DNA of 64,000 bases, taken from contig JAOTVB010000001.1 in NCBI GenBank assembly GCA_029863605.1, positions 62,001 through 126,000 of the forward strand. Reading direction: 5' to 3'. The notes below the pieces were generated by a model that saw only the letters and a list, made by a program, of their open reading frames with translations, searched no databases and was not told the DNA's origin. The DNA comes from Myxococcales bacterium. GTDB lineage: Bacteria; Myxococcota_A; Polyangia; Polyangiales; Houyiibacteriaceae. Shown here piece after piece: positions 9,432 through 23,181 of the stretch. A program made the position numbers and the translations under genes. Within the stretch, counting starts at the first letter, position 1; each line of letters begins with the position of its first letter.

Positions 9432-10361
9432 ATGTATGAAGATCTGTTGTCTGCTCGCCTCAGGTGGGTGCTGGCAGGCTGTTGCATCGTGGTGCTGGTC
9501 GCGGGTTGTGACCTCACGAAGCTCACCGCCGAGTCGACGGCCGGTCTGTTCGAGCGTGCCGCCCCGGGTTTCGAAGAGTACTGGGATTACGAGCTTGCCG
9601 GCGAGGCCGTCCCTGCCACCATCGTCCAACTCGAGGGCATCCTCCGCGTCGCGCCCGACAATGACGCGTTGCTCACTCAGTTGTCACAGGCGTATTTCGG
9701 CTATGCGTACGGTTGGATCGACGTCGACGTCGAGGCGCTCGAGTTCGAGGGCAAGTACGATGAGGCAGACGTCCAGCGCCGCCGCGCGGGCACCATGTAC
9801 TTGCGCTCCAAAGATCTCACGATGCATCGGATCAGCCTCCTGCACCCCGGCGTCTACGACGCGTCGAAGGGCTCTGTCGAGGAGCTAGAAGCGTGGCTCG
9901 AGGAATCGTTCAAAGAAAAGGGCGACGCGCCGCTCTTGCTTTGGGCTGGCCAGGCGTGGGGCGCCTACATCAACGCCGCGAAGGACGACATGGTCGCAGT
10001 GGCTGACCTCCCGTACGCCAAAGCCTACGTGCAGCATTCGATCGTGCTCGACCCGGATTATTACCACGCTGCGGGTTATACTTTCATGGGCCTGGTCACC
10101 GCGTCGGAAATGGCGGCCGATCTCGACGCCGCGAAGGCCTATTTCGATAAGGCTCTGGGAATAACCGAGCGGCGCGCGTTGCTGATCCAGGTCAACATGG
10201 CTCGCTACTACGCCGTGCAGGCGGGCGACCGTGCGTTGTTCGACGAGCTCATCGCCGAAGTCCTAGATGCGGGTGATGTGCTTCCCGAAGCCCGCCTGTC
10301 CAATCGCATGGCAAGAGAGCGCGCGGAGCTCTACACCGCCTACGCAGACCAACTTTTCTAG
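9432..10361 (+). CDS. tatT: TatT-like TPR lipoprotein of a TRAP transporter
   Basis: This 309-residue lipoprotein (lipobox VAGC, Cys26) belongs to the TRAP-associated TPR family described as TatT in Treponema pallidum. Residues 60-300 are all-helical repeats, with family-typical pieces such as SQAYFGYAYGWIDVD, LLLWAGQAWGAYINAA and DPDYYHAAGYTFMG. In Treponema, TatT forms a trimer that binds three TatP substrate-binding subunits in the periplasm. Here the gene heads an operon with dctP, dctQ and dctM, in keeping with that role. The start lacks a ribosome site and may be leaderless. The ligand of the system is unknown. Confidence 0.85.
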   Translation: MYEDLLSARLRWVLAGCCIVVLVAGCDLTKLTAESTAGLFERAAPGFEEYWDYELAGEAVPATIVQLEGILRVAPDNDALLTQLSQAYFGYAYGWIDVDVEALEFEGKYDEADVQRRRAGTMYLRSKDLTMHRISLLHPGVYDASKGSVEELEAWLEESFKEKGDAPLLLWAGQAWGAYINAAKDDMVAVADLPYAKAYVQHSIVLDPDYYHAAGYTFMGLVTASEMAADLDAAKAYFDKALGITERRALLIQVNMARYYAVQAGDRALFDELIAEVLDAGDVLPEARLSNRMARERAELYTAYADQLF

Positions 10362-10512
10362 TGATCTCAGGGACAAAACGGGCGTTGGTCAGAAACCCAA
10401 CAGTTTTCGTTGACTAGACACCCGATCACAGTGAATCTTCGGCTTTCTTGAGCCGTACCTGTCGGTGGGGGTCCACCCCACGGGCGCCGTGCCCGGCTCG
10501 AGTGAGGCAACG

Positions 10513-11517
10513 ATGAAACACAGATTGGCACTAACCCTAGCTCTTGCGCTTCTCGCATCCGCCCTTCCAGGAGCAACCGTCAAATCGGCCAACGCGGAGG
10601 ATGCTACCGAGCTTCGGATAGCGACTTTGGCGCCCAGTGGCTCGTCGTGGATGAAGGTATTCAACGCCTGGAACACGACCCTGCAAAAGCAAACCAACAA
10701 CACGCTGAAGCTTCGGTTCTATACGGGTGGGAGCCAAGGGGATGAGCGCGATTTCATCCGCAAGATGCGTGCAGGCCAGATGGACGGCGCGGCCGTCACG
10801 ACGACGGGCCTCGGCATGTTGGTGCGGTCGATTTTGGTATTATCGCTGCCTGGTGTGTTCACCGAATACGAAGAGCTCGATCGGGTGCGCGCGGAGCTCA
10901 ATGCCGAATTCGAGGAGATGTTCGAGAAGGAAGGCTACAAGCTTCTCGGTTGGGGCGATGTCGGCAAGACGCGCATCTTCTCCATGGAAAAGTTCGAGCG
11001 TCCTGCTGATCTCAAGAAGCTGCGGCCCTGGGCTTGGAAAGACGATTTGATCTTTACGGAGTTCTTGAAGGTCGTCGGCGCCAACGGGGTCCGTCTCGGA
11101 GTGCCCGAGGTATACCCCGCGCTTCAAACGAAGATGGTCGACACCCTTCCGTCTTCCGCACTCGCGGCGGTCTCGCTTCAGTGGTACACGCGGCTCAAAT
11201 ACGTCACCGCCGACAACGACGGCATCATCGTCGGCGCCACCATCATCCGAAAAGACAAGTTCGATGCCCTCACGGAGGAGCAGCAACGAATTCTCGTCGA
11301 CACCGGCATTCGCGCCCACAAGGCCCTCAACAAGTCGATCCGCCGCGACGACGACAAGTCCTATGACACCATTTTGAAGCGTGGAATCACTGCGATCGAC
11401 ATCAGCGCTGCCCAGGCCGAATGGGACAAGGCAGCCGAGCAAGTTCGCACCAATCTGACGGGTCGCGTTTACTCGAAGAGCCTGCTCGACGCGGTCGCAA
11501 AAGCCGCGGGGAAATAG
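10513..11517 (+). CDS. dctP: TRAP transporter substrate-binding protein, DctP family
   Basis: This 334-residue periplasmic receptor starts at ATG 10513, preceded by GAGG, with a signal peptide ending around KSANA. DctP features include LRIATLAPSGSSW at the mature N-terminus, FYTGGSQGDERDFIRKMRAGQMDG, and a ligand-loop region LRPWAWKDDLI. The canonical Arg that binds a carboxylate (usually in a 'KxR' strand about residue 170) may correspond to KKLRPWAW, but this needs alignment. The sequence is closer to TatP/DctP7 types found with TatT than to sialic-acid SiaP. The 151 bases between tatT and dctP hold a GTGGGG/CCCCAC hairpin (10465-10481) but no clear promoter. Confidence 0.9.
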   Translation: MKHRLALTLALALLASALPGATVKSANAEDATELRIATLAPSGSSWMKVFNAWNTTLQKQTNNTLKLRFYTGGSQGDERDFIRKMRAGQMDGAAVTTTGLGMLVRSILVLSLPGVFTEYEELDRVRAELNAEFEEMFEKEGYKLLGWGDVGKTRIFSMEKFERPADLKKLRPWAWKDDLIFTEFLKVVGANGVRLGVPEVYPALQTKMVDTLPSSALAAVSLQWYTRLKYVTADNDGIIVGATIIRKDKFDALTEEQQRILVDTGIRAHKALNKSIRRDDDKSYDTILKRGITAIDISAAQAEWDKAAEQVRTNLTGRVYSKSLLDAVAKAAGK

Positions 11518-11521
11518 CCAA

Positions 11522-12199
11522 GTGAAATACGTTCGGCGCCTGGACCGCCAGCTGGCGCGAGGTGAAGCAGCGGTCGCCGCGACGGTCCTCCTGCTCATGA
11601 TCGTGATCGCGGCGGCGCAGGCCACGCTTCGCAACCTCACCAACTTCGACCTCGATTTCGCGAACGTCATGCTCGAACGGATGGCCTGGGCAGACTCCTT
11701 CCTGCAGAAGGGCACCTTGTGGCTTGCCTTCTTCGGTGCCTCGCTCTCGACCTACGACGAAAAGCACATCGCGATCGATGTTCTTCCGAGGCTCTCTCCG
11801 CCCCGAATGAAGCAGTTCCTTCGGGCCATCGTGTCCACCTTTGGCTCGGTGACCTGCTTCTACTTGGGACGCGTGTTCTGGCTTTCGGTGCTCAACAACG
11901 CGATGGAGGTTCCACTCGAGTACTCGCTGCTCGGGCCTGAAGACGAAATGATTCACGTCTGTCAGGCATCGGCTCAGGCGCTCGCAGATGCAGGGCTCTC
12001 GCGACCGGGCATATTTTGCGGGATTCGTAACATGCTGGGGGTATTCGGGGCGGAGATGTCGACGCCGGACGTCGCCCTTCAGCTGATCGTCCCATCCATG
12101 TTCATCTTCATGTCGGTGCGCTTCCTCCTGCGCGCGATCGCTGCTGGCGTCGCCTTCGTTACCAAGAACTACCCCGACAGCGCCGAAGGGAAGATTTGA
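11522..12199 (+). CDS. dctQ: TRAP transporter small membrane subunit, DctQ family
   Basis: DctQ packs against DctM and is needed for transport. The 225-residue protein has four hydrophobic helices (about 18-38, 64-80, 105-128 and 185-208), the usual DctQ number, with the conserved cytoplasmic motif KHIAIDVLPRL after helix 2. Unlike the 160-170-residue standard, it carries an extra stretch of about 55 residues between helices 3 and 4 (about 130-185) containing two Cys (CQASAQ, IFCGIRN), which may contact the periplasmic DctP/TatT. It starts with GTG 4 bases after dctP and ends 1 base before dctM, so the three are translated as a unit. Confidence 0.85.
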   Translation: MKYVRRLDRQLARGEAAVAATVLLLMIVIAAAQATLRNLTNFDLDFANVMLERMAWADSFLQKGTLWLAFFGASLSTYDEKHIAIDVLPRLSPPRMKQFLRAIVSTFGSVTCFYLGRVFWLSVLNNAMEVPLEYSLLGPEDEMIHVCQASAQALADAGLSRPGIFCGIRNMLGVFGAEMSTPDVALQLIVPSMFIFMSVRFLLRAIAAGVAFVTKNYPDSAEGKI

Positions 12200-12200
12200 G

Positions 12201-13730
12201 ATGGATGGCATTTGGATCGTCATCCTCACCGTCCTCGCCATCCTCGGTGCGCCATTGTTCGCGATCTTTGGTGCTGCATCGATGCTGCTTTTCGGAGCGC
12301 TTGCCGACACCAGCATCACTGGTACCGCGAACGACGTCTTCAGCGAGAAGTTCGCCGATTCCCCGCTGCTGGTCACCATTCCGTTGTTCACCTTTGCCGG
12401 CTATCTCATGGCCGAGAGCGGGACACCGCAACGCCTCGTGAAGCTATCCCGCGCCTGGCTCGGGTGGATGCCGGGTGGGTTGGCGATGGTGTGTCTGGTC
12501 GCGTCTGCTTTCTTCACGACGTTCACCGGCGGCAGCGGCATCACCATCGTCGCCATCGGCGGCCTGCTTTTTCCAGCTCTCCTGGCCGACAAGTACAAAG
12601 AGAACTTCTCCCTCGGCTTGGTCACGACTGGAGGCTCACTCGGGCTCCTGTTCCCCCCGAGCGTCCCGATGATCCTCTACGGCGTCGTCGCCGGCGTCAT
12701 GATCGAGAAGCTCTTCTTGGCCGGCATGATCCCAGGGGTCATCACGGTGGCTACCCTCGGAATCTACAGCGCGTTCACAGGCGTCAAGCACAAGATGCCC
12801 CGGACGTCGTTCCACCGGAAAGAGGCGCTGTCGTCTTTCTGGGAGGCCAAGTGGGAGGTGGCGCTCCCGGTGGGCCTTCTTGGCGGGATGTACAGCGGCC
12901 TGCTTCGCATTCACGAGGCCGCGGCGTTTACCGCCATCTACACCCTCATCATCGAGGTGTTTATATACCGCGACGTGAGCTTCCGGAGGGATCTTCCGCG
13001 AATCATTAGAGAAGCGATGACTCTCGTGGGCGCGATCCTGGTCATTCTCGCGACTGCGATTGGATTCACCGCGTTCCTGATTCAAGCGCGAGTTCCCATG
13101 CTGATCCTCGACGGCATGGAGGGCTTCATCACTTCGCAGCTGATGTTCCTCGTCGCCCTCAACTTCTTCTTGATCGGCGTCGGGATGTTGATGGATATCT
13201 TCTCGGCGATTGTGGTCGTGGTGCCGCTGATAGTCCCGATCGCTTTGCGCTTTGGGGTGGACCCATACCATCTCGGCGTCATCTTCCTGCTCAACCTGGA
13301 GATCGGCTACCTGACTCCACCGGTCGGCTTGAATCTCTTCATCTCGAGCTTCCGATTCAACAAGCCCATCACTCAGCTCTATAGATCCGTCTTGCCCTTC
13401 ATCGGCTTGCTCGCCATCGCGCTGATCATCGTCACCTACATTCCGTCCCTCTCGACCTGGCTCCCGGGCCTGATCGAGGACCAATCGGTGAGCCTCGATA
13501 GCCCAACCGACGACGAAGACGACGTCGGGTTCGACCTCAACGCGCTCGAGGAAGCCGGCGACGACTTCGACCTCGACGACCTCGACGGCGCTGACGAAGA
13601 CGAGCTGGATCTAGACGCACTCGAAGGTGACGACGAGGAGCTGGACCTCGAGGCGCTCGAAGAGGACGGGGGACCAATGGACTTGGACGCCCTCGAGGAC
13701 ACCCCAGACGCCCAGCCAGAAACCCAATAG
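12201..13730 (+). CDS. dctM: TRAP transporter large membrane subunit, DctM family, with acidic repeat tail
   Basis: DctM is the ion-coupled permease. Residues 1-430 hold about 12 hydrophobic segments with family motifs (FAGYLMAESGTPQRL, the TGGSGITI-type loop, GLLFPPSVPMILYG, and IDLEMGYLTPP-like LEIGYLTPPVGLNLF). Beyond the last helix the protein has an unusual 75-residue acidic tail. This is built from five imperfect units of about 13 residues, each with a core like FDLNALEE, LDLDALEG, LDLEALEE or MDLDALED. Standard DctM ends soon after the last helix, so the tail is an addition of unknown use, perhaps a cytoplasmic binding or tethering region. It is the last gene of the operon and is followed by a palindromic terminator-like element. 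Confidence 0.9.
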   Translation: MDGIWIVILTVLAILGAPLFAIFGAASMLLFGALADTSITGTANDVFSEKFADSPLLVTIPLFTFAGYLMAESGTPQRLVKLSRAWLGWMPGGLAMVCLVASAFFTTFTGGSGITIVAIGGLLFPALLADKYKENFSLGLVTTGGSLGLLFPPSVPMILYGVVAGVMIEKLFLAGMIPGVITVATLGIYSAFTGVKHKMPRTSFHRKEALSSFWEAKWEVALPVGLLGGMYSGLLRIHEAAAFTAIYTLIIEVFIYRDVSFRRDLPRIIREAMTLVGAILVILATAIGFTAFLIQARVPMLILDGMEGFITSQLMFLVALNFFLIGVGMLMDIFSAIVVVVPLIVPIALRFGVDPYHLGVIFLLNLEIGYLTPPVGLNLFISSFRFNKPITQLYRSVLPFIGLLAIALIIVTYIPSLSTWLPGLIEDQSVSLDSPTDDEDDVGFDLNALEEAGDDFDLDDLDGADEDELDLDALEGDDEELDLEALEEDGGPMDLDALEDTPDAQPETQ

Positions 13731-13745
13731 AGGGGACCGTCCCCT
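13731..13745. terminator. GGGGACCGTCCCC palindrome between convergent genes
   Basis: AGGGGAC and GTCCCCT flank a single central C, immediately after the dctM stop and just before the stop of the opposite-strand exbD (13748). As RNA it forms a short stem with an ACCGU loop, followed by four Us in the plus direction. It probably ends transcription from both sides. The same core recurs at 24483-24507. Confidence 0.55.
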
Positions 13746-13747
13746 TT

Positions 13748-14353
13748 TCACTCGCCCTTCTTGTTCACCACGAAGCGGAGGTTTTTGAACTCGGTTTGGC
13801 CGAGGGTGTAGATCACTTCGGAGAGCGTTCGGTAGGGGGTGCGTTTGTCGGCGATGATCTGGACATTCCCGACGAAGGGCTGGTTCGCGAAGCGCTGGGC
13901 TGTGCGCTTCTTACGGTCGCGGATCTCACTCAGTCTCTTGTAGAGAGGAGTGATCAGAAAGCCGCTGCTGCCGCCTTGCTTGAGGCTTGGGTCGACGATC
14001 CCGTTTCGAAGCTCGAGGACCGACTTTCCGTCGACGGCTACCTCGCTTCGCGAGATCTGCACCGCTAGAGCGTCACTCAGCTCGACCTTGGAGGTGGAGT
14101 AGGGGATTCGGAGCTCGCTACTTTCCTGGACTGCCGCCGCGGAGGACGTGGCGAACATCGCCATCATATAGACCAGCAGAATCGTCAGCATGTCCATCAT
14201 CGGATAGATGTTCAGCCCGAAGTGCTCGGGCTCCGCCCGCCGACGGAGCTTGGCCCGGATCACACGGTTCACATAGGCCATCGACACCGGCTCTTCTTCG
14301 ACCGGCGGCGCCAAAGAGTTTCGCGTGGGCCTCTTGCCTTCGTTCGTCGTCAT
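13748..14353 (-). CDS. ExbD/TolR-family protein (AglQ/AglS-like), module A second copy
   Basis: This 201-residue protein has a cytosolic N-terminus, one membrane helix at about 50-70 and a periplasmic domain. The helix carries the proton-binding Asp of the family (YPMMDML, Asp54). The periplasmic part ends with a typical TolR fold (VQIIADKRTPYRTLSEVIYTL...NLRFVVNKKG). It is the last gene of a TolQ-ExbD-ExbD operon and overlaps the upstream ExbD by 4 bases (ATGA). In Myxococcus the same gene set, AglR-AglQ-AglS, forms a proton-driven motor for gliding or spore-coat assembly. Here the role is inferred from composition and order only. Confidence 0.85.
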   Translation of the reverse strand: MTTNEGKRPTRNSLAPPVEEEPVSMAYVNRVIRAKLRRRAEPEHFGLNIYPMMDMLTILLVYMMAMFATSSAAAVQESSELRIPYSTSKVELSDALAVQISRSEVAVDGKSVLELRNGIVDPSLKQGGSSGFLITPLYKRLSEIRDRKKRTAQRFANQPFVGNVQIIADKRTPYRTLSEVIYTLGQTEFKNLRFVVNKKGE

Positions 14354-14910
14354 CGAATCCCCGCCGAGAGCAAGACGTCAGGGAACAGCACTTTGCCTTC
14401 ATCGCCGCGCACCGCATCCATGGCTGCAACCAAGTGCTCGTAGGGCACCTCCGGGTCAGCGCTGAGCGTGACGCGTGTCTCATCCTCGAACTGCTGCTTG
14501 ACCCGCGTCACGCACGTCGTGAGCCCCGTCCAATCCTGCTCCCCATTCATTCTGGCTGGCACGGTGAGCACTTTGCCAGGGGCGGTGGTGGCGCATCCGC
14601 GCGCGAGCTTGCCGCCCGAACCAGACACGATGACACCGGCGCTCGTCACCGTGACATTGAGGTTCAGGGCCTCGTTCTGAGCGGCTCGGCTCCCGACGCC
14701 GCCTTTGCGGTACTGGGGGAGTGCAGCCTCGACCTGAGAGAAGAACGCAATCGTAGTCAAGCTCATCAGCAGGAACATGATGATGTTCACCACGATGTCC
14801 AAGAACGGTACGATGTTGAGCTCCTCGCTCACCTCGGACGGATCCGGGTCGGGGATGTTGACGCGCTTTCGAACGTAGGCTCGTTGGCGTGGCGTGAGTC
14901 GTGCGGGCAT
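14350..14910 (-). CDS. ExbD/TolR-family protein (AglQ/AglS-like), module A first copy
   Basis: This 186-residue ExbD-like protein has a single membrane helix about residues 33-55, with the functional Asp in VPFLDIVVNI (Asp38). Its periplasmic domain contains two Cys (RGCATTAPG and LTTCVTRV) that could form a disulfide, a feature absent from the second copy. The end (EVPYEHLVAAMDAVRGDEG...LFPDVLLSAG) matches the TolR C-terminal fold. It lies 12 bases downstream of the TolQ-like gene and overlaps the second ExbD. Two different ExbD partners per TolQ match the AglRQS pattern and suggest a heteromeric stator peg. Confidence 0.85.
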   Translation of the reverse strand: MPARLTPRQRAYVRKRVNIPDPDPSEVSEELNIVPFLDIVVNIIMFLLMSLTTIAFFSQVEAALPQYRKGGVGSRAAQNEALNLNVTVTSAGVIVSGSGGKLARGCATTAPGKVLTVPARMNGEQDWTGLTTCVTRVKQQFEDETRVTLSADPEVPYEHLVAAMDAVRGDEGKVLFPDVLLSAGIR

Positions 14911-14922
14911 CTTAGGCCCCGG

Positions 14923-15555
14923 TCAACCGCCCTGGCGACGCAACGTGAGGAGGTTTTCGAGCTGCATCGTGACCTTTTCCATCTCGTGCTTGTGTCGCTT
15001 GGTGAGTCCATGCAACACGAGGTGAGCGATCATGAAGATCACCGCGATCAAGAGACCGAGGAAGGTGTTCCACATCGCTTCGGCGATGCCTGCGGAGAGC
15101 AGCGCCGTCTTTTGAGAAGGGTCGTCGATCGTGCCGACCGCCTTGAACGCGCGAATCAAACCACTGATCGTCCCGAGCAGGCCGATCAAGGTCGCGATGT
15201 TCGCCAGAGTCCAAAGAGAGCCCGTGCGCTTTTCAAGCGCGGGGATCACCTCGGACATCTTTTCCTCCATCGAAGCGATGACGGCTTCTTCGCCGCGGTT
15301 CACCTGCGTGAGCCCCGACTTGACGACCTCGAGCAGTGGTATGGCCTTGGCTTCGCATTGACGTATTGCACGGTCGATGTTTCCGGCCTGCACGAGCTTG
15401 CGAATTCGATTCATGAATTCGGGCGCATCGACGCTGTAGTTCATCCGGATGTACCAGGCGCGGTCGATGATGACGCCGACGCCAAAAGCCAAAACCCCGA
15501 GATTGATGAACGAAAACGGAGCACCTTCGACTAGTGCCTCCCAGATTTCATGCAT
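14923..15555 (-). CDS. MotA/TolQ/ExbB proton-channel protein (AglR-like), module A
   Basis: This 210-residue protein has three membrane helices: about 14-34, then two C-terminal helices around 115-135 and 155-178. The cytosolic loop between helices 1 and 2 is typical of TolQ/ExbB, as is the LWTLANIATLIGLLGTISGLI segment with its conserved Thr and Gly residues. It would form the pentameric proton channel that works with the two ExbD partners encoded next. It is the first gene of the minus-strand module. Its promoter probably lies at 15702-15731. It shares only family-level similarity with the plus-strand copy, so the two modules are not a recent duplication. Confidence 0.88.
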   Translation of the reverse strand: MHEIWEALVEGAPFSFINLGVLAFGVGVIIDRAWYIRMNYSVDAPEFMNRIRKLVQAGNIDRAIRQCEAKAIPLLEVVKSGLTQVNRGEEAVIASMEEKMSEVIPALEKRTGSLWTLANIATLIGLLGTISGLIRAFKAVGTIDDPSQKTALLSAGIAEAMWNTFLGLLIAVIFMIAHLVLHGLTKRHKHEMEKVTMQLENLLTLRRQGG

Positions 15556-15701
15556 GCTTGCGGCTCCCTCCAGCTCGCCCGAGATTCTCGGCGAGACACC
15601 CCGATTTTTCGCTCCCCTTCAGTCGCGCTGGAATTCGGACCCATGAGCCGGAATCCATTGAAATCATTACGACTGTCGGGGCAGACCCCTTGTGGACGGG
15701 G

Positions 15702-15731
15702 ACGCTACCCCACGCCCGTGAGCGTTGTCAA
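15702..15731 (-). promoter_or_regulatory. Putative promoter of TolQ/ExbD module A
   Basis: On the minus strand a perfect TTGACA (15726-15731) is followed after 18 bases by TAGCGT (15702-15707). The -10 is weak and sits inside the loop of a GGGG/CCCC hairpin, which could be regulatory. The leader to the ATG at 15555 would be about 140 bases. Confidence 0.35.
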
Positions 15732-15810
15732 CGCGACTACAGCTTTTTCCGTTCTTCTGACCCAAGCTCCCCGCCTGGCGGGTTTCTAAGGAGTTGAGTA
15801 AGACACGATA

Positions 15811-15838
15811 TTGACTTGCTGGATCCAACCGTTATCAT
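15811..15838 (+). promoter_or_regulatory. Putative sigma-70 promoter of TolQ/ExbD module B
   Basis: TTGACT (15811-15816) and TATCAT (15833-15838) are separated by 16 bases, with local A/T richness and a likely start near 15845. This is the best promoter match in the intergenic region and explains the long leader that follows. Confidence 0.55.
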
Positions 15839-15844
15839 CCCTAT

Positions 15845-15985
15845 GTAGTAAGCAAACCGTGGGAATGCTTACTGTTCTGGGGGGAACAGCGAGTTTTAAG
15901 CAGAAGACAGTGGTGGGGATTGCACCGTACTCACTCGGGGTCCGGATAACACTGTCAAAGTAAAGTTCGCAGGAGGCAGTACAAA
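15845..15985 (+). promoter_or_regulatory. Structured 5' leader of TolQ/ExbD module B
   Basis: The predicted 140-base leader contains three helices: AGTAAGCA/TGCTTACT (15847-15854 with 15866-15873), CTGTTC/GAACAG (15872-15877 with 15884-15889) and GACAGTG/CACTGTC (15906-15912 with 15950-15956). The first two share two bases. The word ACTGT occurs at both 15871 and 15951, and either copy could pair with ACAGT at 15907, so alternative folds are possible. A strong AGGAGG (15971-15976) sits 9 bases before the ATG. It may be a regulatory RNA element; no known riboswitch was recognised. Confidence 0.4.
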
Positions 15986-16636
15986 ATGGCCAAGTTGGCG
16001 TATCACTTTGAAGCGGGCGGATGGGCGATGTGGCTAATCCTCATTTGTCTCGTGGTTGCGATCGGCTTCACCGTCGAGCGCGCGATGTACCTCTACAAGT
16101 CGTCGATCGATAAAGACGAGTTCATCGCCAAGATGCAGAAGTGCATCACCGCCGGAGACGTGGCGGGGGCGATCAAGGTCTGCTCGGCAGAGCACAACCC
16201 GCTCGCTCGGATCGTCAAGCAGGGTTTGCTGAAAGTGAACCGGCCCGACGCCGAGGTGCAAGCGGCCATGGATGAAGCTGCTCTCAAAGAGCTTCCGCAG
16301 ATCGAGCGTCGCACGCCGTATCTCGGTCTGCTCGCAAACGTCGGTATGCTTTTTGGTCTTTTCGGAACCGTCGTCGGTTTGATCACCGCGTTCGGCGAGG
16401 TGGCCAAGGCCGATGCAGCCAGCAAGGCGACCGGTCTCGCAAAAGGCATCGAAGAAGCGATGAACTGCACTGCTTTCGGTCTCATCACGGCGGTTTTCGC
16501 GCTTCTGATGATGGGCATCCTGAATGGCAGGACGCAGAAGATCATCGATGACATCAACGCGGCGACCGTGCAGGTTCTGAACCTGGTGGTCGGGAACCGC
16601 TCTAAGGTCGATCTGCAAAACATGCCGGCCGAGTAG
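15986..16636 (+). CDS. MotA/TolQ/ExbB proton-channel protein (AglR-like), module B
   Basis: This 216-residue protein has three membrane helices (about 12-32, 112-134 and 155-178). It has the TolQ/ExbB signature region GLLANVGMLFGLFGTVVGLITAF in the second helix and a conserved Glu/Asn-rich third helix (EEAMNCTAFGLITAVFALL). It has an excellent ribosome site (AGGAGG) and starts an operon of four genes. It is expected to form a proton channel with the two ExbD proteins that follow. Compared with module A it lacks the extended C-terminus and keeps only family-level identity. Confidence 0.88.
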   Translation: MAKLAYHFEAGGWAMWLILICLVVAIGFTVERAMYLYKSSIDKDEFIAKMQKCITAGDVAGAIKVCSAEHNPLARIVKQGLLKVNRPDAEVQAAMDEAALKELPQIERRTPYLGLLANVGMLFGLFGTVVGLITAFGEVAKADAASKATGLAKGIEEAMNCTAFGLITAVFALLMMGILNGRTQKIIDDINAATVQVLNLVVGNRSKVDLQNMPAE

Positions 16637-16654
16637 CGGCGAAAGGGCGTCCAA

Positions 16655-17146
16655 GTGGCATCGATCGAAACAGGCGGAAGCGGCTCTGGGAAGAAAGCGG
16701 TCAATCAGGAAATCCCCCTGATTCCGTTTATCGACCTCCTGCTTTGCTGCGTGATGTTCTTGTTGGCGACCGCGGTCTGGAACCAGCTCGCCGCGATGAA
16801 CGCCAACCAGCAAGTCCCAGGGCAGGCCTCGACCGAGGATGCTCCACCCGAAGACGAAAAGGTGAAGCTCATCCTGCAGGTACGGAACTCCGGCTACGTG
16901 CTGGGGTCTTCGGCGGGGGAGAGCATCGATATCAAGAAGCGGGTCGTCGCTGACCAGCGCGAGTTCGATGTCGACGAGCTCGAAGCCAAGCTGGCGCAGT
17001 GGAAGCAAGCTTGGGACAAGCGCGAGGACTTGATCGTCGCGCCCGAAGATGGCGTCCGGTACGAGGACGTGATCGTGGCAATGGATGTCGCGTCAGCGGC
17101 CGGGTTCAAAGCCCTGTCGATGGCCGACGGAGCAGCGTTCCTGTAG
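16655..17146 (+). CDS. ExbD/TolR-family protein, module B first copy
   Basis: This 163-residue protein has a GTG start 18 bases after the TolQ-like gene. A Gly/Ser-rich N-terminus precedes the single membrane helix with the functional Asp27 (IPLIPFIDLLL). The periplasmic part is shorter than usual in strands and ends in a TolR-like alpha/beta unit (VRYEDVIVAMDVASAAGFKALSM). The Pro-Leu-Ile-Pro-Phe-Ile-Asp motif is identical in the next ExbD gene, suggesting that these two arose by duplication inside the module while specialising in their periplasmic parts. Confidence 0.82.
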   Translation: MASIETGGSGSGKKAVNQEIPLIPFIDLLLCCVMFLLATAVWNQLAAMNANQQVPGQASTEDAPPEDEKVKLILQVRNSGYVLGSSAGESIDIKKRVVADQREFDVDELEAKLAQWKQAWDKREDLIVAPEDGVRYEDVIVAMDVASAAGFKALSMADGAAFL

Positions 17147-17158
17147 GAGGGAAGAGCG

Positions 17159-17695
17159 ATGGCAATCAAACGGCCACAACCAGAGCTGCTTCACCACATT
17201 CCGCTGAGGTTCGTCCGGAACCGCGTTGCCGGTCATGGGCGAAAGGCGGTCGACCATCAGATCCCCTTGATTCCGTTCATCGACTTCTTGATCGTTCTCG
17301 TGATCTTCTTGCTGATGTCTTTCTCGGCATCCGGCGAGCTGATCGCCCAACAGCCGACCATTACCATGCCAGCGGCGTCGAACACCGAGCAGATCGAGAT
17401 CTCGCCGGTCGTGGCGGTCGACGAGCGCGTGATCACGCTCGACGGTAGCCGGGTCGCCGACACTCAGACGTTGGGCGCGACGGCTCAGGTCGATCGCATC
17501 GAGCCGCTCATTCAGGGGCTCGAGGCCGAAAAGCGCAAGTGGGAGACCATCCATCCTTCGGAGCCGTTTGCCGGGCAGGTCATCGTCCAGGCCGATCGCA
17601 ACATCGACTTCCGAGTCGTAAAGAAGGTGATGTTCTCCGCTGCTGCTGCAGGCTACGGAAACGTGAGCTTCGCGGTCAATCAGCGCGAAAAGTAG
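17159..17695 (+). CDS. ExbD/TolR-family protein, module B second copy
   Basis: This 178-residue protein starts at ATG 17159 after GGAGGGAAGAGCG, a good ribosome site. The membrane helix around 36-57 holds Asp42 in IPLIPFIDFLIV. The periplasmic domain has a clear TolR C-terminal core (GQVIVQADRNIDFRVVKKVM...NVSFAVNQREK). Together with the preceding copy and the TolQ-like channel it makes an AglRQS-type set. Conservation of the Asp in all four ExbD proteins of the region argues that both modules are working proton machines. Confidence 0.85.
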   Translation: MAIKRPQPELLHHIPLRFVRNRVAGHGRKAVDHQIPLIPFIDFLIVLVIFLLMSFSASGELIAQQPTITMPAASNTEQIEISPVVAVDERVITLDGSRVADTQTLGATAQVDRIEPLIQGLEAEKRKWETIHPSEPFAGQVIVQADRNIDFRVVKKVMFSAAAAGYGNVSFAVNQREK

Positions 17696-17708
17696 TACTG
17701 TTCTCACC

Positions 17709-18575
17709 ATGGGGCCCTCGGAGCTCACTCCTGCCGAGTTCGAAGGCGTTCGCAAGAACCGATACCGGCCCCGACTGCCGTGGAAGCGCATCGGTTTGTT
17801 GCTTGCGCTCGTGGCGCTGGTCGTCGGTGGCTACTTCTGGCGACAAAAGGTTCGCGCCGACGAGCTCCGAGAGCGGGTGTACACCCAGCACGCCAAGCAG
17901 GTGGCGCCAACGCTCCACGCGCTCGAAGAGACGCGCATCGACCTTCGCCGAAAGGCGCTGGACGCGAAGGCCGGAGCGGCAAATCGACTGGTCGAAGCCG
18001 AGGTTCCACTTTCGGCGCTGCACGACGAGAAGGTCATCTATCTGAAGGTGCTTGCAACCGACCTCGCCTCCGAAGAGGCGCTACAAACCGCGATCGAGGC
18101 AGACGAGGAAGACGCGGTTGGCGCTTGCCTAGGCCTCGACCTGATCGAGCTCTCAGCGCTTTCGGATGTGCCCGAGGTGCTGACCGCGAAATGGCTCGCC
18201 AGCGCCGAGGATACCAACGACATGATGCGGCTGAGCGTTCGCGAGGAACAGCTCACCCGGGCGATCGAACGAGAGCTTCCGGCGCTGCAAGAGCTGGTAC
18301 CCGCCGAGTATTTCCTCTTGTTGGTCGTTCAAGGGCAGAGCCGCCTTCGCGATCCCGTCGACGTGTTTCTGTGGGATCTCGTCGACGACCGGTTGGTACT
18401 TCGATCCCGGACGGAGAACCGTGGACGGCTGATCACCGTGCTCAGCCGGATCGGACCGAACACCGATGGGTCGCGCGCCAATGGCGATCCGATCGTCACG
18501 GCGGACTGCTCGATCGCGGCGCACATCAAGGCCCAGCTTGGAGAACCGACGATGGACCTAGCATCGTCGGACTGA
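17709..18575 (+). CDS. Single-pass membrane protein of module B, unknown function
   Basis: This 288-residue protein has a basic cytosolic N-terminus, one membrane helix (about 28-44, IGLLLALVALVVGGYFW) and a large exported domain. The exported part starts with a likely coiled coil (about 50-105, RVYTQHAKQVAPTLHALEETR) and continues as an alpha/beta domain with AACLGLDL-like and YFLLLVVQG segments. It starts 13 bases after the second ExbD and is probably the fourth gene of the operon. In TolQ/ExbD systems a further bitopic protein such as TonB or TolA transmits force to a partner, but no TonB box-like or Pro-rich spacer is seen. Its last 50 bases overlap the convergent peptidase gene. Confidence 0.5.
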   Translation: MGPSELTPAEFEGVRKNRYRPRLPWKRIGLLLALVALVVGGYFWRQKVRADELRERVYTQHAKQVAPTLHALEETRIDLRRKALDAKAGAANRLVEAEVPLSALHDEKVIYLKVLATDLASEEALQTAIEADEEDAVGACLGLDLIELSALSDVPEVLTAKWLASAEDTNDMMRLSVREEQLTRAIERELPALQELVPAEYFLLLVVQGQSRLRDPVDVFLWDLVDDRLVLRSRTENRGRLITVLSRIGPNTDGSRANGDPIVTADCSIAAHIKAQLGEPTMDLASSD

Positions 18576-20814
18576 CCTGCCCGGTTTGGGCGTACTCGAT
18601 CCGCTCTATCCAGCGCTGTGCGTCGGCGGCGGCGGCCGGGCTGATCGACTTGCGCCGTTGCCAAACCTCTTGCGACTCGGCATAGGCATCTTCTGCAAAG
18701 AGTGCGACGCCGAGCATGTGTCCCAGCTCGCGCTCCAAACGCTCGGTCGGAACCCCAAGTGCCTCGGCTTCTTGCAGCAAGGGCAGCGCTAGACCGTATC
18801 GCCCCTGGAACAACAACTGCCTTCCCTCGAGATACCGCCCCAGGCCATCGGTTCTCGCGTCGGCCAAAGCCTGCGCGATGTGGACCGCGACCGGTGGTGA
18901 AGGCGGCTCGATCAGCATCTGGTACACGAGCGCCTGCTCCTCGGGGCTTCCGGCAAGGGCGAGCTTCTTCACTTCGCTTTGCCTGGCAGGACCGTCGGTC
19001 CGGGGAATCGAAAGAAGCTCGTCGTAGAGCGCCGCTGCCTGTGCGAGATCGCCCAGCGTCCAGATCGCGTCGGCGAATTGCTCGAGGGCGTTTGCAACGA
19101 TCGGCTTCGGTGCATTCATCGCCGCGCGGAGGGCATCGAGCTCGGTGCGGGCTTGCGCTTCATTGCCGGTTCTCGCTAGTGCGCCGATCAGCGCGGCGTG
19201 CGCTTGGGGGTCGTTCATATCGACATCCAAAATCGCACGGCAAGTCTCGAGGGTGCGCGTGTCATCGCGCGCAGCTGCGTCACCAGCCAGGTCTGCCCGG
19301 AGCTTTGCCAAACGGTGCGGGCAGACCGCAGCGAAAATGCTCGGCTCCGCGAGGGCGACTTCGGCGATACCGCGTTCGTGATCGGTCACCTGTACCTTGG
19401 AAAGATAGGCGTGCCACTCCGTTTCGAGGGTATCGAGGTCGTCGATCGCACCGTCGCGATAATCGCGTAGGAACGAGTCGGTGCCACGGGTCACGATCAG
19501 AAACCGCATGAGAGACCCCGCAGCCATATAGGCGCGCCTGGGCGGCAGAGCGCTGAATCGAAGGCCCGTCAAGCTTCCGGCCGGAGGCAGCTCATCACGA
19601 TCGAGCATGATTCGCGACCACTGATCGGGATCCATGTCGTCGCGTAGGTCCCAGGCGAGCGCCACGGCTGCCCCTTCGATGACGCCGGGGTTCGGGAGCA
19701 GACCCCCGAAGCGTCCAGCGACCGAGAATGGACCCATGGCTGCGTCTTTGAGCACCGCGTGGGCCACTTCGTGTCCAAGCACGGGGTGCGGCCAGCCACC
19801 GACCTGTAGATAGACCTCGCTGCGCCAGGGCTTGGCGATCAAAGTTCGGCCTACCCCGATCAGCGCCTTCTTCTCGTCCCGAGTTCGGAAGAAATACGCC
19901 GTCACCGGCTCCGTCGATTCGAGACCGAGCAGACTCCGCGTCCGCGCGACCTGAAAGTCGCAGTCTTCGACGAGGCGCTTTGCGTTCGGTGGGGGCGTCT
20001 CTCGGGGCATGTAGACCACGCAGTGCTTGCCCGACTCGCTCTTTCCCAGCCGTTCCGAGAGATAATCCGCAGTGATCCAGAAACCGAGGTGGTTGCCGAC
20101 CGAATACGAACCCGCGACGAGCCCCAGCATGGCAAGGCCCACGACGAGAGTGCCCGGTCGGTAACGCCACCCGCGTCCGAAATGGAGGAGCTCGGAGACT
20201 CGATCCCAGAGCGCGTCGAAGAGCAGCACCAACGCGACGGTCGTGACCAGGGTGACACTCCTGTAGGTGAGATACCGCTCTGGGATGGGAACGAAGTCGT
20301 CGTAGATCGCGCCTGGGAAATATCCTGCGAATGCCCCGAAGACGTAGACCGTCGGCGTCGTATAGAAAGCCCAGAGGCCCCACAGAAGGCCGCCGATGGG
20401 CACCGCGGCCGCCACCCATGGAGACCAACGCGAACTCGGCAACAGGGCGGCGACCCAGACCCCCGTGACCGCCGCCAACGCACACCCGATCGCGGGGCCC
20501 AACACCATGAAAGCCAAGCCCTCCCAAGGCGCACACTGGCGCACACGAAGGGAGTTCAACGCCAGAATTACTACGGGAATGGACCAAATGACGAGCCCGC
20601 TGCCTATCGCACGAGACATCAGGTCGATGCCCCGCACTGCGCCTTCTCGGCGCTGGTAGTTGGCTGCGGTGGCGGCGACCCACGGTGGCAAGAGGATGCC
20701 CAAGGCGAGCGCGCTTTCGACTCCATGTACACCGAGCAATGGATTGAGGGCCAGCGCGGTGCCGACGACGACTCCAACCAAAGCGGACAACCAAAACGTG
20801 AGCGATGTCGTCAC
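18526..20814 (-). CDS. Polytopic membrane metallopeptidase (MA-type) with C-terminal TPR region
   Basis: This 762-residue protein begins with about seven hydrophobic helices (1-265). A soluble domain follows with a gluzincin motif GHEVAHAVLKDA (HExxH, about 345-350) and a downstream Glu (GVIEGAAVALA, about 378) that would be the third zinc ligand, as in peptidase MA/M1-type families. From about 490 to the end there are helical tetratricopeptide-like repeats (PQAHAALIGALARTG, DLAQAAALYDELLS). The zinc site probably lies in the periplasm or membrane face. It starts 3 bases after the lon stop, so it is probably co-transcribed with that quality-control protease. Substrates are unknown. Confidence 0.7.
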   Translation of the reverse strand: MTTSLTFWLSALVGVVVGTALALNPLLGVHGVESALALGILLPPWVAATAANYQRREGAVRGIDLMSRAIGSGLVIWSIPVVILALNSLRVRQCAPWEGLAFMVLGPAIGCALAAVTGVWVAALLPSSRWSPWVAAAVPIGGLLWGLWAFYTTPTVYVFGAFAGYFPGAIYDDFVPIPERYLTYRSVTLVTTVALVLLFDALWDRVSELLHFGRGWRYRPGTLVVGLAMLGLVAGSYSVGNHLGFWITADYLSERLGKSESGKHCVVYMPRETPPPNAKRLVEDCDFQVARTRSLLGLESTEPVTAYFFRTRDEKKALIGVGRTLIAKPWRSEVYLQVGGWPHPVLGHEVAHAVLKDAAMGPFSVAGRFGGLLPNPGVIEGAAVALAWDLRDDMDPDQWSRIMLDRDELPPAGSLTGLRFSALPPRRAYMAAGSLMRFLIVTRGTDSFLRDYRDGAIDDLDTLETEWHAYLSKVQVTDHERGIAEVALAEPSIFAAVCPHRLAKLRADLAGDAAARDDTRTLETCRAILDVDMNDPQAHAALIGALARTGNEAQARTELDALRAAMNAPKPIVANALEQFADAIWTLGDLAQAAALYDELLSIPRTDGPARQSEVKKLALAGSPEEQALVYQMLIEPPSPPVAVHIAQALADARTDGLGRYLEGRQLLFQGRYGLALPLLQEAEALGVPTERLERELGHMLGVALFAEDAYAESQEVWQRRKSISPAAAADAQRWIERIEYAQTGQVSPTMLGPSSVLQAGP

Positions 20815-20817
20815 GGC

Positions 20818-23181
20818 CTATTCGGCGGCCGCCGGCGCGGTCGTGGGATCGGGCGCTGAGACCAGGTCCAGTATCTCGTCGACTCGGGACACGAGGCAGA
20901 TCTCGATCCCTTCGCGGATCTCCTGGGGGACCTCCTCGAGGTCTGGCTCGTTGCGTTTCGGCAACAGGATCCGCCTCACGCCTGCGCGATAGGCAGCGAG
21001 GCACTTTTCTTTGATTCCGCCGACCCTGAGCACGTTGCCGCGCAGAGTGATCTCGCCGCTCATCGCGACGTCGGGTCGTACCTTGAGCTCAGTGAGCACC
21101 GAAGCAAGTGCCACGTAGAGCGGGACACCGGCCGACGCGCCGTCTTTAGGAGTCGCACCAGCCGGCAGGTGGACGTGAATGTCGATGTGGCTAACGAAGT
21201 CCTCTGCAAGGCCGAGCTCCTCGGCCCGCGCTCGGACGAAAGTAAACGCCGCAGCCGCCGACTCTTTGAGGACGTCGCCCATGCTGCCAGTCAGGTGAAG
21301 CTTGCCGGTCCCCGGCATTCGAGTGGCTTCGACGAAGAGTAGGTCTCCTCCAGCCGGCGTCCACGCCAAACCCGTTGCGACTCCAGGGCGAGCGGCCCGC
21401 TCCGGTCGTTGCCTCTTCGCCTTGGCGGCGCCCAAGACCTCCGCGATGAACGGCGGATCGGCCATAATCGACACGTCTTCTCCGTTTGCAAGGCGCACCG
21501 CCACCGCGCGGCACACTGCCGCAGCCTGTTGCTCGAGCTTTCGAACCCCCGCTTCATGTGTGTACGATTCAACCATGACGTCGATCGCTTCGTCCGAAAA
21601 GTCGAGCCGCTCGATCGAAAGACCGTGCTCGTGCAGCTGCCTCGGAACGAGGAAGTCGCGCGCGATGGAACGCTTCTCCCGAGGTGTGTAGCCCGGAATT
21701 TCGATGACTTCCATTCGATCGAGCAGCGGGCTCGGAATCGTGCTCCGCTGATTGGCCGTTGCGATGAACATCACCTTGCTCAGATCGAAAGGCGCGTCGA
21801 TGTAGTGGTCGGTGAACTGATGGTTCTGCTCTGGGTCGAGCACCTCGAGGAGCGCGCTCGAAGGGTCGCCGCGCTGGTCTCGTCCGAGCTTGTCGATTTC
21901 GTCGAGGATCATCACCGGGTTGTTCGACGCCGCTTTCTTTAGCCCTGAGATGATACGTCCGGGGAAAGCGCCTACGTATGTGCGTCGGTGCCCACGGATC
22001 TCGGCTTCGTCGTAAACGCCACCGAGCGACACGCGAACGAACTGCCTGCCGGCGGCTCGGGCAATCGATCGTGCAAGAGACGTCTTGCCGACTCCAGGAG
22101 GACCGACGAAACAGAGAATCGGAGCGCGACCGTCCCGCCGGAGCTTTCGGACTGCGATGTATTCCACGATGCGCTTCTTGGGCTTCTCGAGGCCGTAGTG
22201 ATCTTCGTCGAGTACAGTCCGAGCCGCCGTCACATCCAAGCGGTCGGGCGTGGATTTCTTCCAGGGGAGGTCAGCAAGCCATTCGACGTACGAGCGAGCG
22301 ACTTGGTATTCGCTGCTTGCGGTATTCATGTTGCTCATGCGTCGCAGCTCTCGCTTGGCCGATTGCTCGGCGTCCGAAGGGAGGCCCGACAGGGCGATCC
22401 GCTCGCGAAGGGCCTCGATATCGTCCTCGTCGACATCGGTTTCGCCGAGCTCACGTCGAATGGCCTTGACCTGCTGTCGGAGTAGGTACTCCCTTTGCGA
22501 GCTGGACATTTCCTCTTCGACCATGGTTGATATCTCTTGCTTCACTCGCAAGACTTCGTTCTGGCGTTGGACCTGGTCGAGCACCTTTCGAATGCGGTCG
22601 CGTACATCGAGGGTCTCGAGCACCTCTTGCTTGGACTCGTTCGATACTGGGAGGTTCGATTCGATCAGGTCCGCTAGGGCGCCTGGCTCTCGCACGTTGT
22701 CGAGGATGTGAAGCGACTCGCGCGACGCGGTGGGCAGGTCGTTCAGAAGCCGGCGCGCAGATTCGCGCAAGTGCGCCGAGAGCGCCTCGATTTCGACATC
22801 GACGACGGGAGCCTCGCGGAATCGCTGCACGCGGGCTCGCATCGTAGGGTGGCGGCCGAGGGGTTCTTCGATACGCATCCGGCTGACGCCCTGGAGCACC
22901 ACGCTGTACTGCCCCGAGTTCAAGCGGATCACTTTCAGGACGCGCGCGATCGTTCCGGTCTGATAGACCTGCTCGAACGTGGGATCCTCCACTTCGGGCT
23001 TGTGCTGGGTCACCACTCCGATCGCAGGTCGCTCGCGGCCACACGCCTCCTCGATCAAGCGGACCGAACGCGCGCGACCCACGTTGACCGGTACGACCGT
23101 CGCCGGAAACAACACTGAGTTCCGAAGCGGCAGGATCGGCAAGATCGGCTCGGCGCCTGCTGGAAAGATCGAGTCCGACAT
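20818..23181 (-). CDS. lon: ATP-dependent Lon protease
   Basis: Lon unfolds and degrades damaged or regulatory proteins in the cytosol. The 787-residue protein is full length. The N-terminal substrate domain (PILPLRNSVLFPATVVPV) is followed by the Walker A motif GPPGVGKTS (about 358-366), Walker B (VMILDEIDKLG), and the protease domain. The Ser-Lys dyad is in PKDGASAG (Ser about 682; most Lon have DGPSAG) and GGIKEK (Lys about 723). The GDVLKESA element is also conserved. It heads an operon with the MA-type membrane peptidase. In Myxococcus two Lon proteins (LonV, LonD) exist and this cannot be told apart here. Confidence 0.97.
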   Translation of the reverse strand: MSDSIFPAGAEPILPILPLRNSVLFPATVVPVNVGRARSVRLIEEACGRERPAIGVVTQHKPEVEDPTFEQVYQTGTIARVLKVIRLNSGQYSVVLQGVSRMRIEEPLGRHPTMRARVQRFREAPVVDVEIEALSAHLRESARRLLNDLPTASRESLHILDNVREPGALADLIESNLPVSNESKQEVLETLDVRDRIRKVLDQVQRQNEVLRVKQEISTMVEEEMSSSQREYLLRQQVKAIRRELGETDVDEDDIEALRERIALSGLPSDAEQSAKRELRRMSNMNTASSEYQVARSYVEWLADLPWKKSTPDRLDVTAARTVLDEDHYGLEKPKKRIVEYIAVRKLRRDGRAPILCFVGPPGVGKTSLARSIARAAGRQFVRVSLGGVYDEAEIRGHRRTYVGAFPGRIISGLKKAASNNPVMILDEIDKLGRDQRGDPSSALLEVLDPEQNHQFTDHYIDAPFDLSKVMFIATANQRSTIPSPLLDRMEVIEIPGYTPREKRSIARDFLVPRQLHEHGLSIERLDFSDEAIDVMVESYTHEAGVRKLEQQAAAVCRAVAVRLANGEDVSIMADPPFIAEVLGAAKAKRQRPERAARPGVATGLAWTPAGGDLLFVEATRMPGTGKLHLTGSMGDVLKESAAAAFTFVRARAEELGLAEDFVSHIDIHVHLPAGATPKDGASAGVPLYVALASVLTELKVRPDVAMSGEITLRGNVLRVGGIKEKCLAAYRAGVRRILLPKRNEPDLEEVPQEIREGIEICLVSRVDEILDLVSAPDPTTAPAAAE

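What the first reader, a model, noticed from the sequence alone, without database searches (positions are those of the whole stretch)
13748..18575. Two divergent TolQ-ExbD-ExbD motor modules back to back
Two complete 1 TolQ + 2 ExbD sets sit head to head, and all four ExbD proteins keep the membrane Asp needed for proton use (Asp54, Asp38, Asp27, Asp42). This is the gene arrangement of AglRQS-type motors in Myxococcus, here doubled and accompanied by a fourth bitopic protein (17709-18575). The two sets differ enough to suggest separate jobs. The role, whether gliding, surface-polymer or outer-membrane energisation, is inferred.
Basis: partly seen in the sequence, partly recalled or inferred. 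Interest (0 to 1): 0.6.

Follow-up and report, generated by a model that had tools for sequence, protein, structure and literature searches.

The report
Paired head-to-head Agl-type proton motors
A myxobacterium-like genome carries two different proton-driven membrane motors of the kind that powers gliding in Myxococcus; they sit back to back in nearly all relatives of the same order, and each probably drives its own cell-surface transport machine encoded elsewhere in the genome.

Summary
Two complete 1 MotA/TolQ/ExbB + 2 ExbD cassettes lie head to head (Da2-Da1-Ba / Bb-Db1-Db2), all four ExbDs keep the membrane Asp, and a one-TM protein (BIT) follows. Phylogeny rejects ordinary TolQ/ExbB (AU p 5e-113). 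Both sets belong to a 1+2 clade whose members elsewhere in the phylum sit inside gltC-gltD-gltE-[motor]-gltG operons, so the AglRQS-type reading is supported. They are not a recent tandem duplication (AU p 6e-6) but two ancient motor lineages, unlinked in other orders and joined head to head in the window's order (27 of 31 genomes). The genome also has a normal Tol-Pal, a lone ExbBD, two motor-less Glt core clusters (one with FHA-type GltG, one with short GltG), a GltJ-like protein and MglA/MglB. Outside the order the Ba set lies beside the second-type GltD in 26 of 35 genomes; a genus that lost Ba also lost that GltD. Best reading: two Agl-class motors, each for its own Glt/Nfs-like machine, with BIT an order-specific, sometimes lost add-on to the Bb motor. 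The Bb set is the likelier AglRQS equivalent. Not tested: direct comparison with M. xanthus AglR. The cargo is inferred.

The parts
13748..14353 (-). Da2: second ExbD of set A (AglS-position), 201 aa, Asp54
14350..14910 (-). Da1: first ExbD of set A (AglQ-position), 186 aa, Asp38; overlaps Da2 start by 4 bp
14923..15555 (-). Ba: MotA/TolQ/ExbB subunit of set A, 210 aa, 3 TM; clade of motors found in gltC-D-E-[motor]-G operons
15556..15985 (.). 430-bp divergent intergenic region; GGAGG-like ribosome sites before Ba and Bb
15986..16636 (+). Bb: MotA/TolQ/ExbB subunit of set B, 216 aa, 3 TM; likelier AglR equivalent
16655..17146 (+). Db1: first ExbD of set B, 163 aa, Asp27 (compare published AglQ: 162 aa, Asp28)
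17159..17695 (+). Db2: second ExbD of set B, 178 aa, Asp42
17709..18575 (+). BIT: one-TM protein of unknown family, periplasmic part with two invariant Cys (C140, C267); stays with set B when set A is lost; restricted to the order
9432..13730 (+). Neighbouring TRAP transporter set TatT-DctP-DctQ-DctM; recurrent but not constant neighbour, probably not part of the motor
18526..20814 (-). Neighbouring polytopic protein with HEVAH motif and TPR-like C-terminal part; recurrent neighbour with Lon

Best explanation
The locus encodes two Agl-class proton motors. In each, a Ba or Bb ring (pentamer by homology) encloses ExbD subunits whose membrane Asp and the ring Thr residues carry protons; the motion is passed to a TonB-like one-TM transducer (GltG or GltJ type) made elsewhere in the genome, and on to periplasmic and outer-membrane Glt proteins. 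Set A (Ba-Da1-Da2) is the motor of the second Glt cluster (contig C10, short GltG). Set B (Bb-Db1-Db2) most likely serves the FHA-GltG cluster (contig C5), the AglRQS-Glt equivalent. BIT is an order-specific accessory or anchor of the set B motor. The two motors were brought together head to head in the ancestor of this order, possibly for joint expression. Shown: gene content, invariant residues, phylogeny, linkage and co-loss patterns. Inferred: proton flow, partner assignment for set B, role of BIT, and gliding or surface-polymer transport as output.
For: 1+2 cassettes separate from TolQ/ExbB and TolR/ExbD. Ba relatives within 12 kb of GltD2-type genes in 26 of 35 non-order genomes and of GltD1-type in 0 of 33, in operons with GltE and GltG. 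Genus g32 lost Ba and has no detectable GltD2 while keeping Bb and GltD1. Bb lies one gene from full-length GltG in G193. The window's genome has two motor-less Glt clusters and no other 1+2 motor, plus GltJ-like and MglAB. Db1 matches published AglQ in length, ExbD span and Asp position (PMC3169522; PMC3858216). AglR binds GltG (PMC3169522).
Against: No Myxococcus AglR sequence could be compared. Bb-GltG linkage was seen in one genome only; Bb was never within 12 kb of a GltD gene. Some genomes break the pairing (G193 has Ba without detectable GltD2; G115 likewise). Co-occurrence tests are not corrected for kinship. One Agl motor serves two Glt-like complexes in M. xanthus, so one-to-one pairing is not necessary.
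Confidence: 0.66

Rival explanations
1. The motors energise outer-membrane uptake coupled to the adjacent TRAP/TatT transporter, in the manner of ExbBD-TonB, with BIT as the transducer.
For: TatT-DctP-DctQ-DctM is next to the block here, and DctM lies in the fetched stretch in 13 of 38 order loci from several families.
Against: The motor pair persists where no TRAP genes are near (families f5, f7, f12). No TonB-type protein or receptor was found at the locus. Phylogeny rejects ExbB/TolQ kinship. BIT is missing in some genera that keep both motors.
Confidence: 0.1
2. The two cassettes form one composite machine: Ba and Bb (or their ExbDs) mix in one complex or are mechanically joined through BIT.
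For: Head-to-head linkage conserved in 27 of 31 order genomes with gaps under about 1 kb.
Against: Genus g32 keeps the Bb set without the Ba set; the sets are unlinked in other orders; Ba and Bb share only 38% identity.
Confidence: 0.1
3. Both cassettes are Agl-class, but partner assignment is the reverse or shared: one motor drives both Glt clusters, and the other has a different output, as for the silent M. xanthus set MXAN_3003-5.
For: In M. xanthus AglRQS drives both Glt and Nfs, while MXAN_3003-5 is dispensable for motility and sporulation and MXAN_3003 does not bind GltG or NfsG (PMC3858216). Many genomes here have two Glt clusters but only a Ba-type motor.
Against: Ba relatives are operonic with GltD2-type genes in 26 genomes, and Ba and GltD2 are lost together in g32.
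Confidence: 0.14

Closest known systems
AglRQS motor of Myxococcus xanthus (MXAN_6862-6860) with the Glt gliding complex
   Same: One MotA/TolQ/ExbB plus two ExbD genes in the same order; Asp in both ExbDs; genome has gltC-D-E-G, GltJ-like and mglAB; Db1 has the size and Asp position published for AglQ.
   Different: Two such cassettes head to head, a fourth one-TM gene, and no Glt gene beside them. Direct sequence orthology untested.
Second Agl set of M. xanthus, MXAN_3003-3005 (M2)
   Same: A second complete Agl-type cassette in a genome with several Glt-like clusters.
   Different: In Myxococcus the two cassettes carry distant locus numbers, and MXAN_3003-5 has no known role; here they are adjacent. 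Which window set is M2-like is undecided.
Agl-Nfs spore-coat machine of M. xanthus
   Same: Agl motor coupled to a Glt paralogue; a model for set A with the second Glt cluster.
   Different: Nfs uses the AglRQS motor itself; the second Glt cluster here differs (short GltG without FHA).
TolQR and ExbBD
   Same: Same superfamily and the same proton-path residues.
   Different: 1+1 gene sets, separate clade, and both already present elsewhere in this genome.

Membership tests
AglRQS-type motor class | One MotA/TolQ/ExbB gene followed by two ExbD genes | tested here: met
   first and second ExbDs form separate clades shared by both sets
AglRQS-type motor class | Membrane Asp in both ExbDs and channel Thr in the B subunit | tested here: met
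AglRQS-type motor class | Phylogenetic separation from TolQ/ExbB and shared clade with motors in glt operons | tested here: met
AglRQS-type motor class | Co-encoded GltG partner and Glt core | tested here: met
   two clusters, scores below NCBIfam equivalog cut-offs
AglRQS (orthology to M. xanthus AglR) | Grouping with the AglR sequence itself | not tested
   no Myxococcus genome or AglR sequence was reachable; only published lengths, domain spans and Asp28 compared
AglRQS-type motor class | Proton conduction, focal adhesion localisation, AglR-GltG binding | not testable with these tools
   needs experiments
Tol-Pal (TolQR) | B subunit in TolQ clade, linked to tolA-tolB-pal | tested here: not met
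   the genome's Tol-Pal is at C28:642 kb (L092)
ExbBD-TonB | B subunit in ExbB clade, one ExbD, linked TonB or receptor | tested here: not met
   the lone ExbB-ExbD pair is at contig C49 (L093)

The most novel reading that the evidence does not exclude
The head-to-head pair is a co-regulated two-motor unit: two Agl-class motors of different origin work at the same envelope site, each driving its own Glt-type machine, with BIT tying the set B motor to a partner or to the cell wall. This would be a dual-motor surface transport system not described in Myxococcus.
Probability: 0.2. Interest if true: 0.75.

Novelty: new variant of a known kind. Interest (0 to 1): 0.52.

Why it matters
M. xanthus also has a second Agl-type motor (MXAN_3003-5) and extra Glt-like clusters of unknown role. 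This locus shows that the second motor type is an old lineage kept across the phylum, suggests which Glt-type complex the set A motor drives, and gives a single small locus where two motors and one accessory protein, with their two Glt complexes elsewhere in the genome, can be deleted one by one.

Tried and rejected
AlphaFold2 of BIT with 16 close homologues gave mean pLDDT 46: unusable, no fold search made. AlphaFold2 of the TPR neighbour gave pLDDT 64 with the HEVAH region poor; not pursued. BIT has no Pfam, NCBIfam or PDB match and no relative outside the order in the loci held. A BIT-like role for the 399-aa one-TM protein upstream of the Ba set in L113 was tested by profile comparison and rejected (probability 1.3). 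Myxococcus AglR could not be fetched: the one genome-contig scan went to BIT, and no genome with a GltG over the curated cut-off was in the phylum sample. The text search for aglQ D28N failed under that spelling, but PMC3858216 states it. The AU test on Da1+Db1 without the third-set ExbDs is uninformative because the third set nests within that group. Recent tandem duplication of the cassettes was rejected.

Full report
WHAT IS THERE. Two are MotA/TolQ/ExbB proteins and four are ExbD proteins, all above Pfam cut-offs. The 17709-18575 product (called BIT here) has one hydrophobic segment at residues 23-41 and no match in Pfam, NCBIfam or PDB sequences. I call the sets A (Ba-Da1-Da2, minus strand) and B (Bb-Db1-Db2-BIT, plus strand). 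Asp54, Asp38, Asp27 and Asp42 are exactly where stated and invariant in 30, 46, 55 and 55 orthologues. Both B proteins keep the Thr residues equivalent to E. coli TolQ T145 and T178. Ba and Bb are 38% identical; the ExbDs are 21-32% identical over local alignments.

GENOME INVENTORY. The genome has four MotA_ExbB genes and six ExbD genes. Besides the window, there is one TolQ-TolR pair in a pal-tolQ-tolR-tolA-tolB cluster (L092) and one lone ExbB-ExbD pair (L093). So the two window cassettes are the only 1+2 motors. The nearest named relatives are Myxococcales/Polyangiaceae-type metagenome-assembled genomes.

CONSERVATION. The block Da2-Da1-Ba / Bb-Db1-Db2 recurs in relatives from many genera of the same order. 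In the phylum sample, 27 of 31 genomes of the order have Ba and Bb divergent with a 292-1019 bp gap; one of the four exceptions is split at contig ends (G101), in one Ba was not found (G013), and two of one genus (g32) lack Ba. In four genomes from other orders of the class, Ba and Bb are on different contigs; in G120, G128 and G193 the fetched stretches hold one set without the other.

PHYLOGENY. With 63 B proteins, all 1+2 motors split from TolQ/ExbB with 100/100 support; Ba of the order plus outside relatives form one clade (92/96) and Bb plus relatives another (88/84) (a 95-row tree agrees). Holding the window's Ba and Bb with TolQ/ExbB is rejected (AU p 4.9e-113). Holding Ba and Bb of the order as one clade, as a recent tandem duplication would require, is rejected (AU p 6.3e-6). 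In the ExbD tree the first-position ExbDs (Da1, Db1) and second-position ExbDs (Da2, Db2) form separate clades, both apart from TolR/ExbD (100/97). The simplest reading is that a whole three-gene cassette was duplicated long ago, before the classes and orders sampled here diverged.

LINK TO GLT MACHINES. In families of other classes the Ba-type cassette lies in an operon GltC/GltD-GltE-[motor]-GltG; in L110 the neighbours match NCBIfam GltE (83 bits), GltG (191 bits) and the AgmX/PglI tail domain (104 bits, over its cut-off) (layouts). The window's genome has two Glt core clusters without motor genes. Cluster 1 (L156, contig C5): GltC (281 bits), a 1205-aa GltD-like TPR protein, GltE (115 bits), FHA-type GltG (392 bits) and a TPR protein. 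Cluster 2 (L207, contig C10): a 796-aa GltC-like protein, a 1293-aa GltD-like protein, GltE-like (99 bits) and a short GltG without FHA (163 bits). Scores are under the NCBIfam equivalog cut-offs, which appear tuned to close relatives of Myxococcus (inference). A GltJ-like protein (zinc ribbon, GYF domain, AgmX tail; L208) and an MglA-MglB-like pair (GTPase with an Arf match plus Roadblock protein; L213) are also present. The names MglA and MglB rest on my own knowledge of these sequences.

PARTNER ASSIGNMENT. Across the phylum sample, Ba is within 12 kb of a cluster-2-type GltD in 26 of 35 non-order genomes that have both, and never near cluster-1-type GltD (0 of 33); Bb is near neither (0 of 13, 0 of 12). 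Inside the order Ba is never linked to GltD2 (0 of 27): the motor has left its operon. The genus that lost Ba (G054, G133) also has no GltD2 match while keeping Bb and GltD1. Counter-cases are G193 (Ba, no GltD2 match) and G115. In G193 the Bb set is one gene away from full-length GltG (424 bits). Published data give AglQ as 162 aa with ExbD at 15-158 (PMC3169522) and Asp28 as essential for proton conductance (PMC3858216); Db1 is 163 aa with ExbD at 15-157 and Asp27, whereas Da1 is 186 aa with Asp38. So set B is the likelier AglRQS equivalent and set A the motor of the second Glt complex. M. xanthus has exactly one other complete Agl set, MXAN_3003-5, dispensable for motility and sporulation, whose AglR homologue does not bind GltG or NfsG (PMC3858216); M2 and two Glt-like regions there have unknown function (PMC3169522). 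Whether set A corresponds to M2 could not be tested.

BIT. It follows Db2 in most order loci, stays with the Bb set when Ba is lost (L083), and has Cys140, Pro191 and Cys267 invariant in 44 sequences. It is missing in genera g8 and g26, which keep both motors, and no relative was found outside the order in the loci held. It is therefore more likely an accessory or anchor than the main force transducer, which would be GltG or GltJ.

NEIGHBOURS. A TRAP transporter set lies next to the block; DctM is present in 13 of 38 order loci, absent in families f5, f7 and f12. A polytopic HEVAH/TPR protein and Lon are also recurrent neighbours. Compared with other genera, the motor block is inverted relative to these flanks in the window's genus. 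This looks like old gene order rather than function, but a link to uptake is not excluded.

VERDICT. The output (gliding, polymer transport or both) remains inferred.

Noticed in passing
window 9432-13730: TRAP transporter set with TatT component beside the motor block; the DctM protein carries an acidic repeat tail (DLDALEG-type) at its C-terminus.
   Followed up: partly
window 18526-20814 (-): Polytopic membrane protein with invariant HExxH-type motif (HEVAH) and TPR-like C-terminal half, overlapping the 3' end of BIT by 50 bp; recurrent neighbour of the motors and Lon.
   Followed up: partly
L120 8200-9522, L121 7854-9179: In genus g75 of family f33, two tandem Bb-type B genes share one Db1-Db2 pair.
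   Followed up: no
L160-L163: A third, divergent 1+2 motor set occurs in several larger genomes of the order next to 655-709 aa genes.
   Followed up: partly
L083 (G054) and G133: Genus g32 kept Bb-Db1-Db2-BIT but lost the Ba set and has no cluster-2 GltD match.
   Followed up: yes
L053, L055, L056, L059, L069, L071 against window 9432-23181: The seven-gene motor block is inverted between constant flanks (TRAP on one side, TPR-Lon on the other) in the window's genus compared with other genera.
   Followed up: partly
L113 5037-8158 (-): In another order of the class the Ba operon begins with a 399-aa one-TM protein and a 641-aa lipoprotein-like protein; not related to BIT by profile comparison.
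   Followed up: partly
L066 12442-13448: A second Db1-Db2 pair lies downstream of BIT in one genome of family f8.
   Followed up: no
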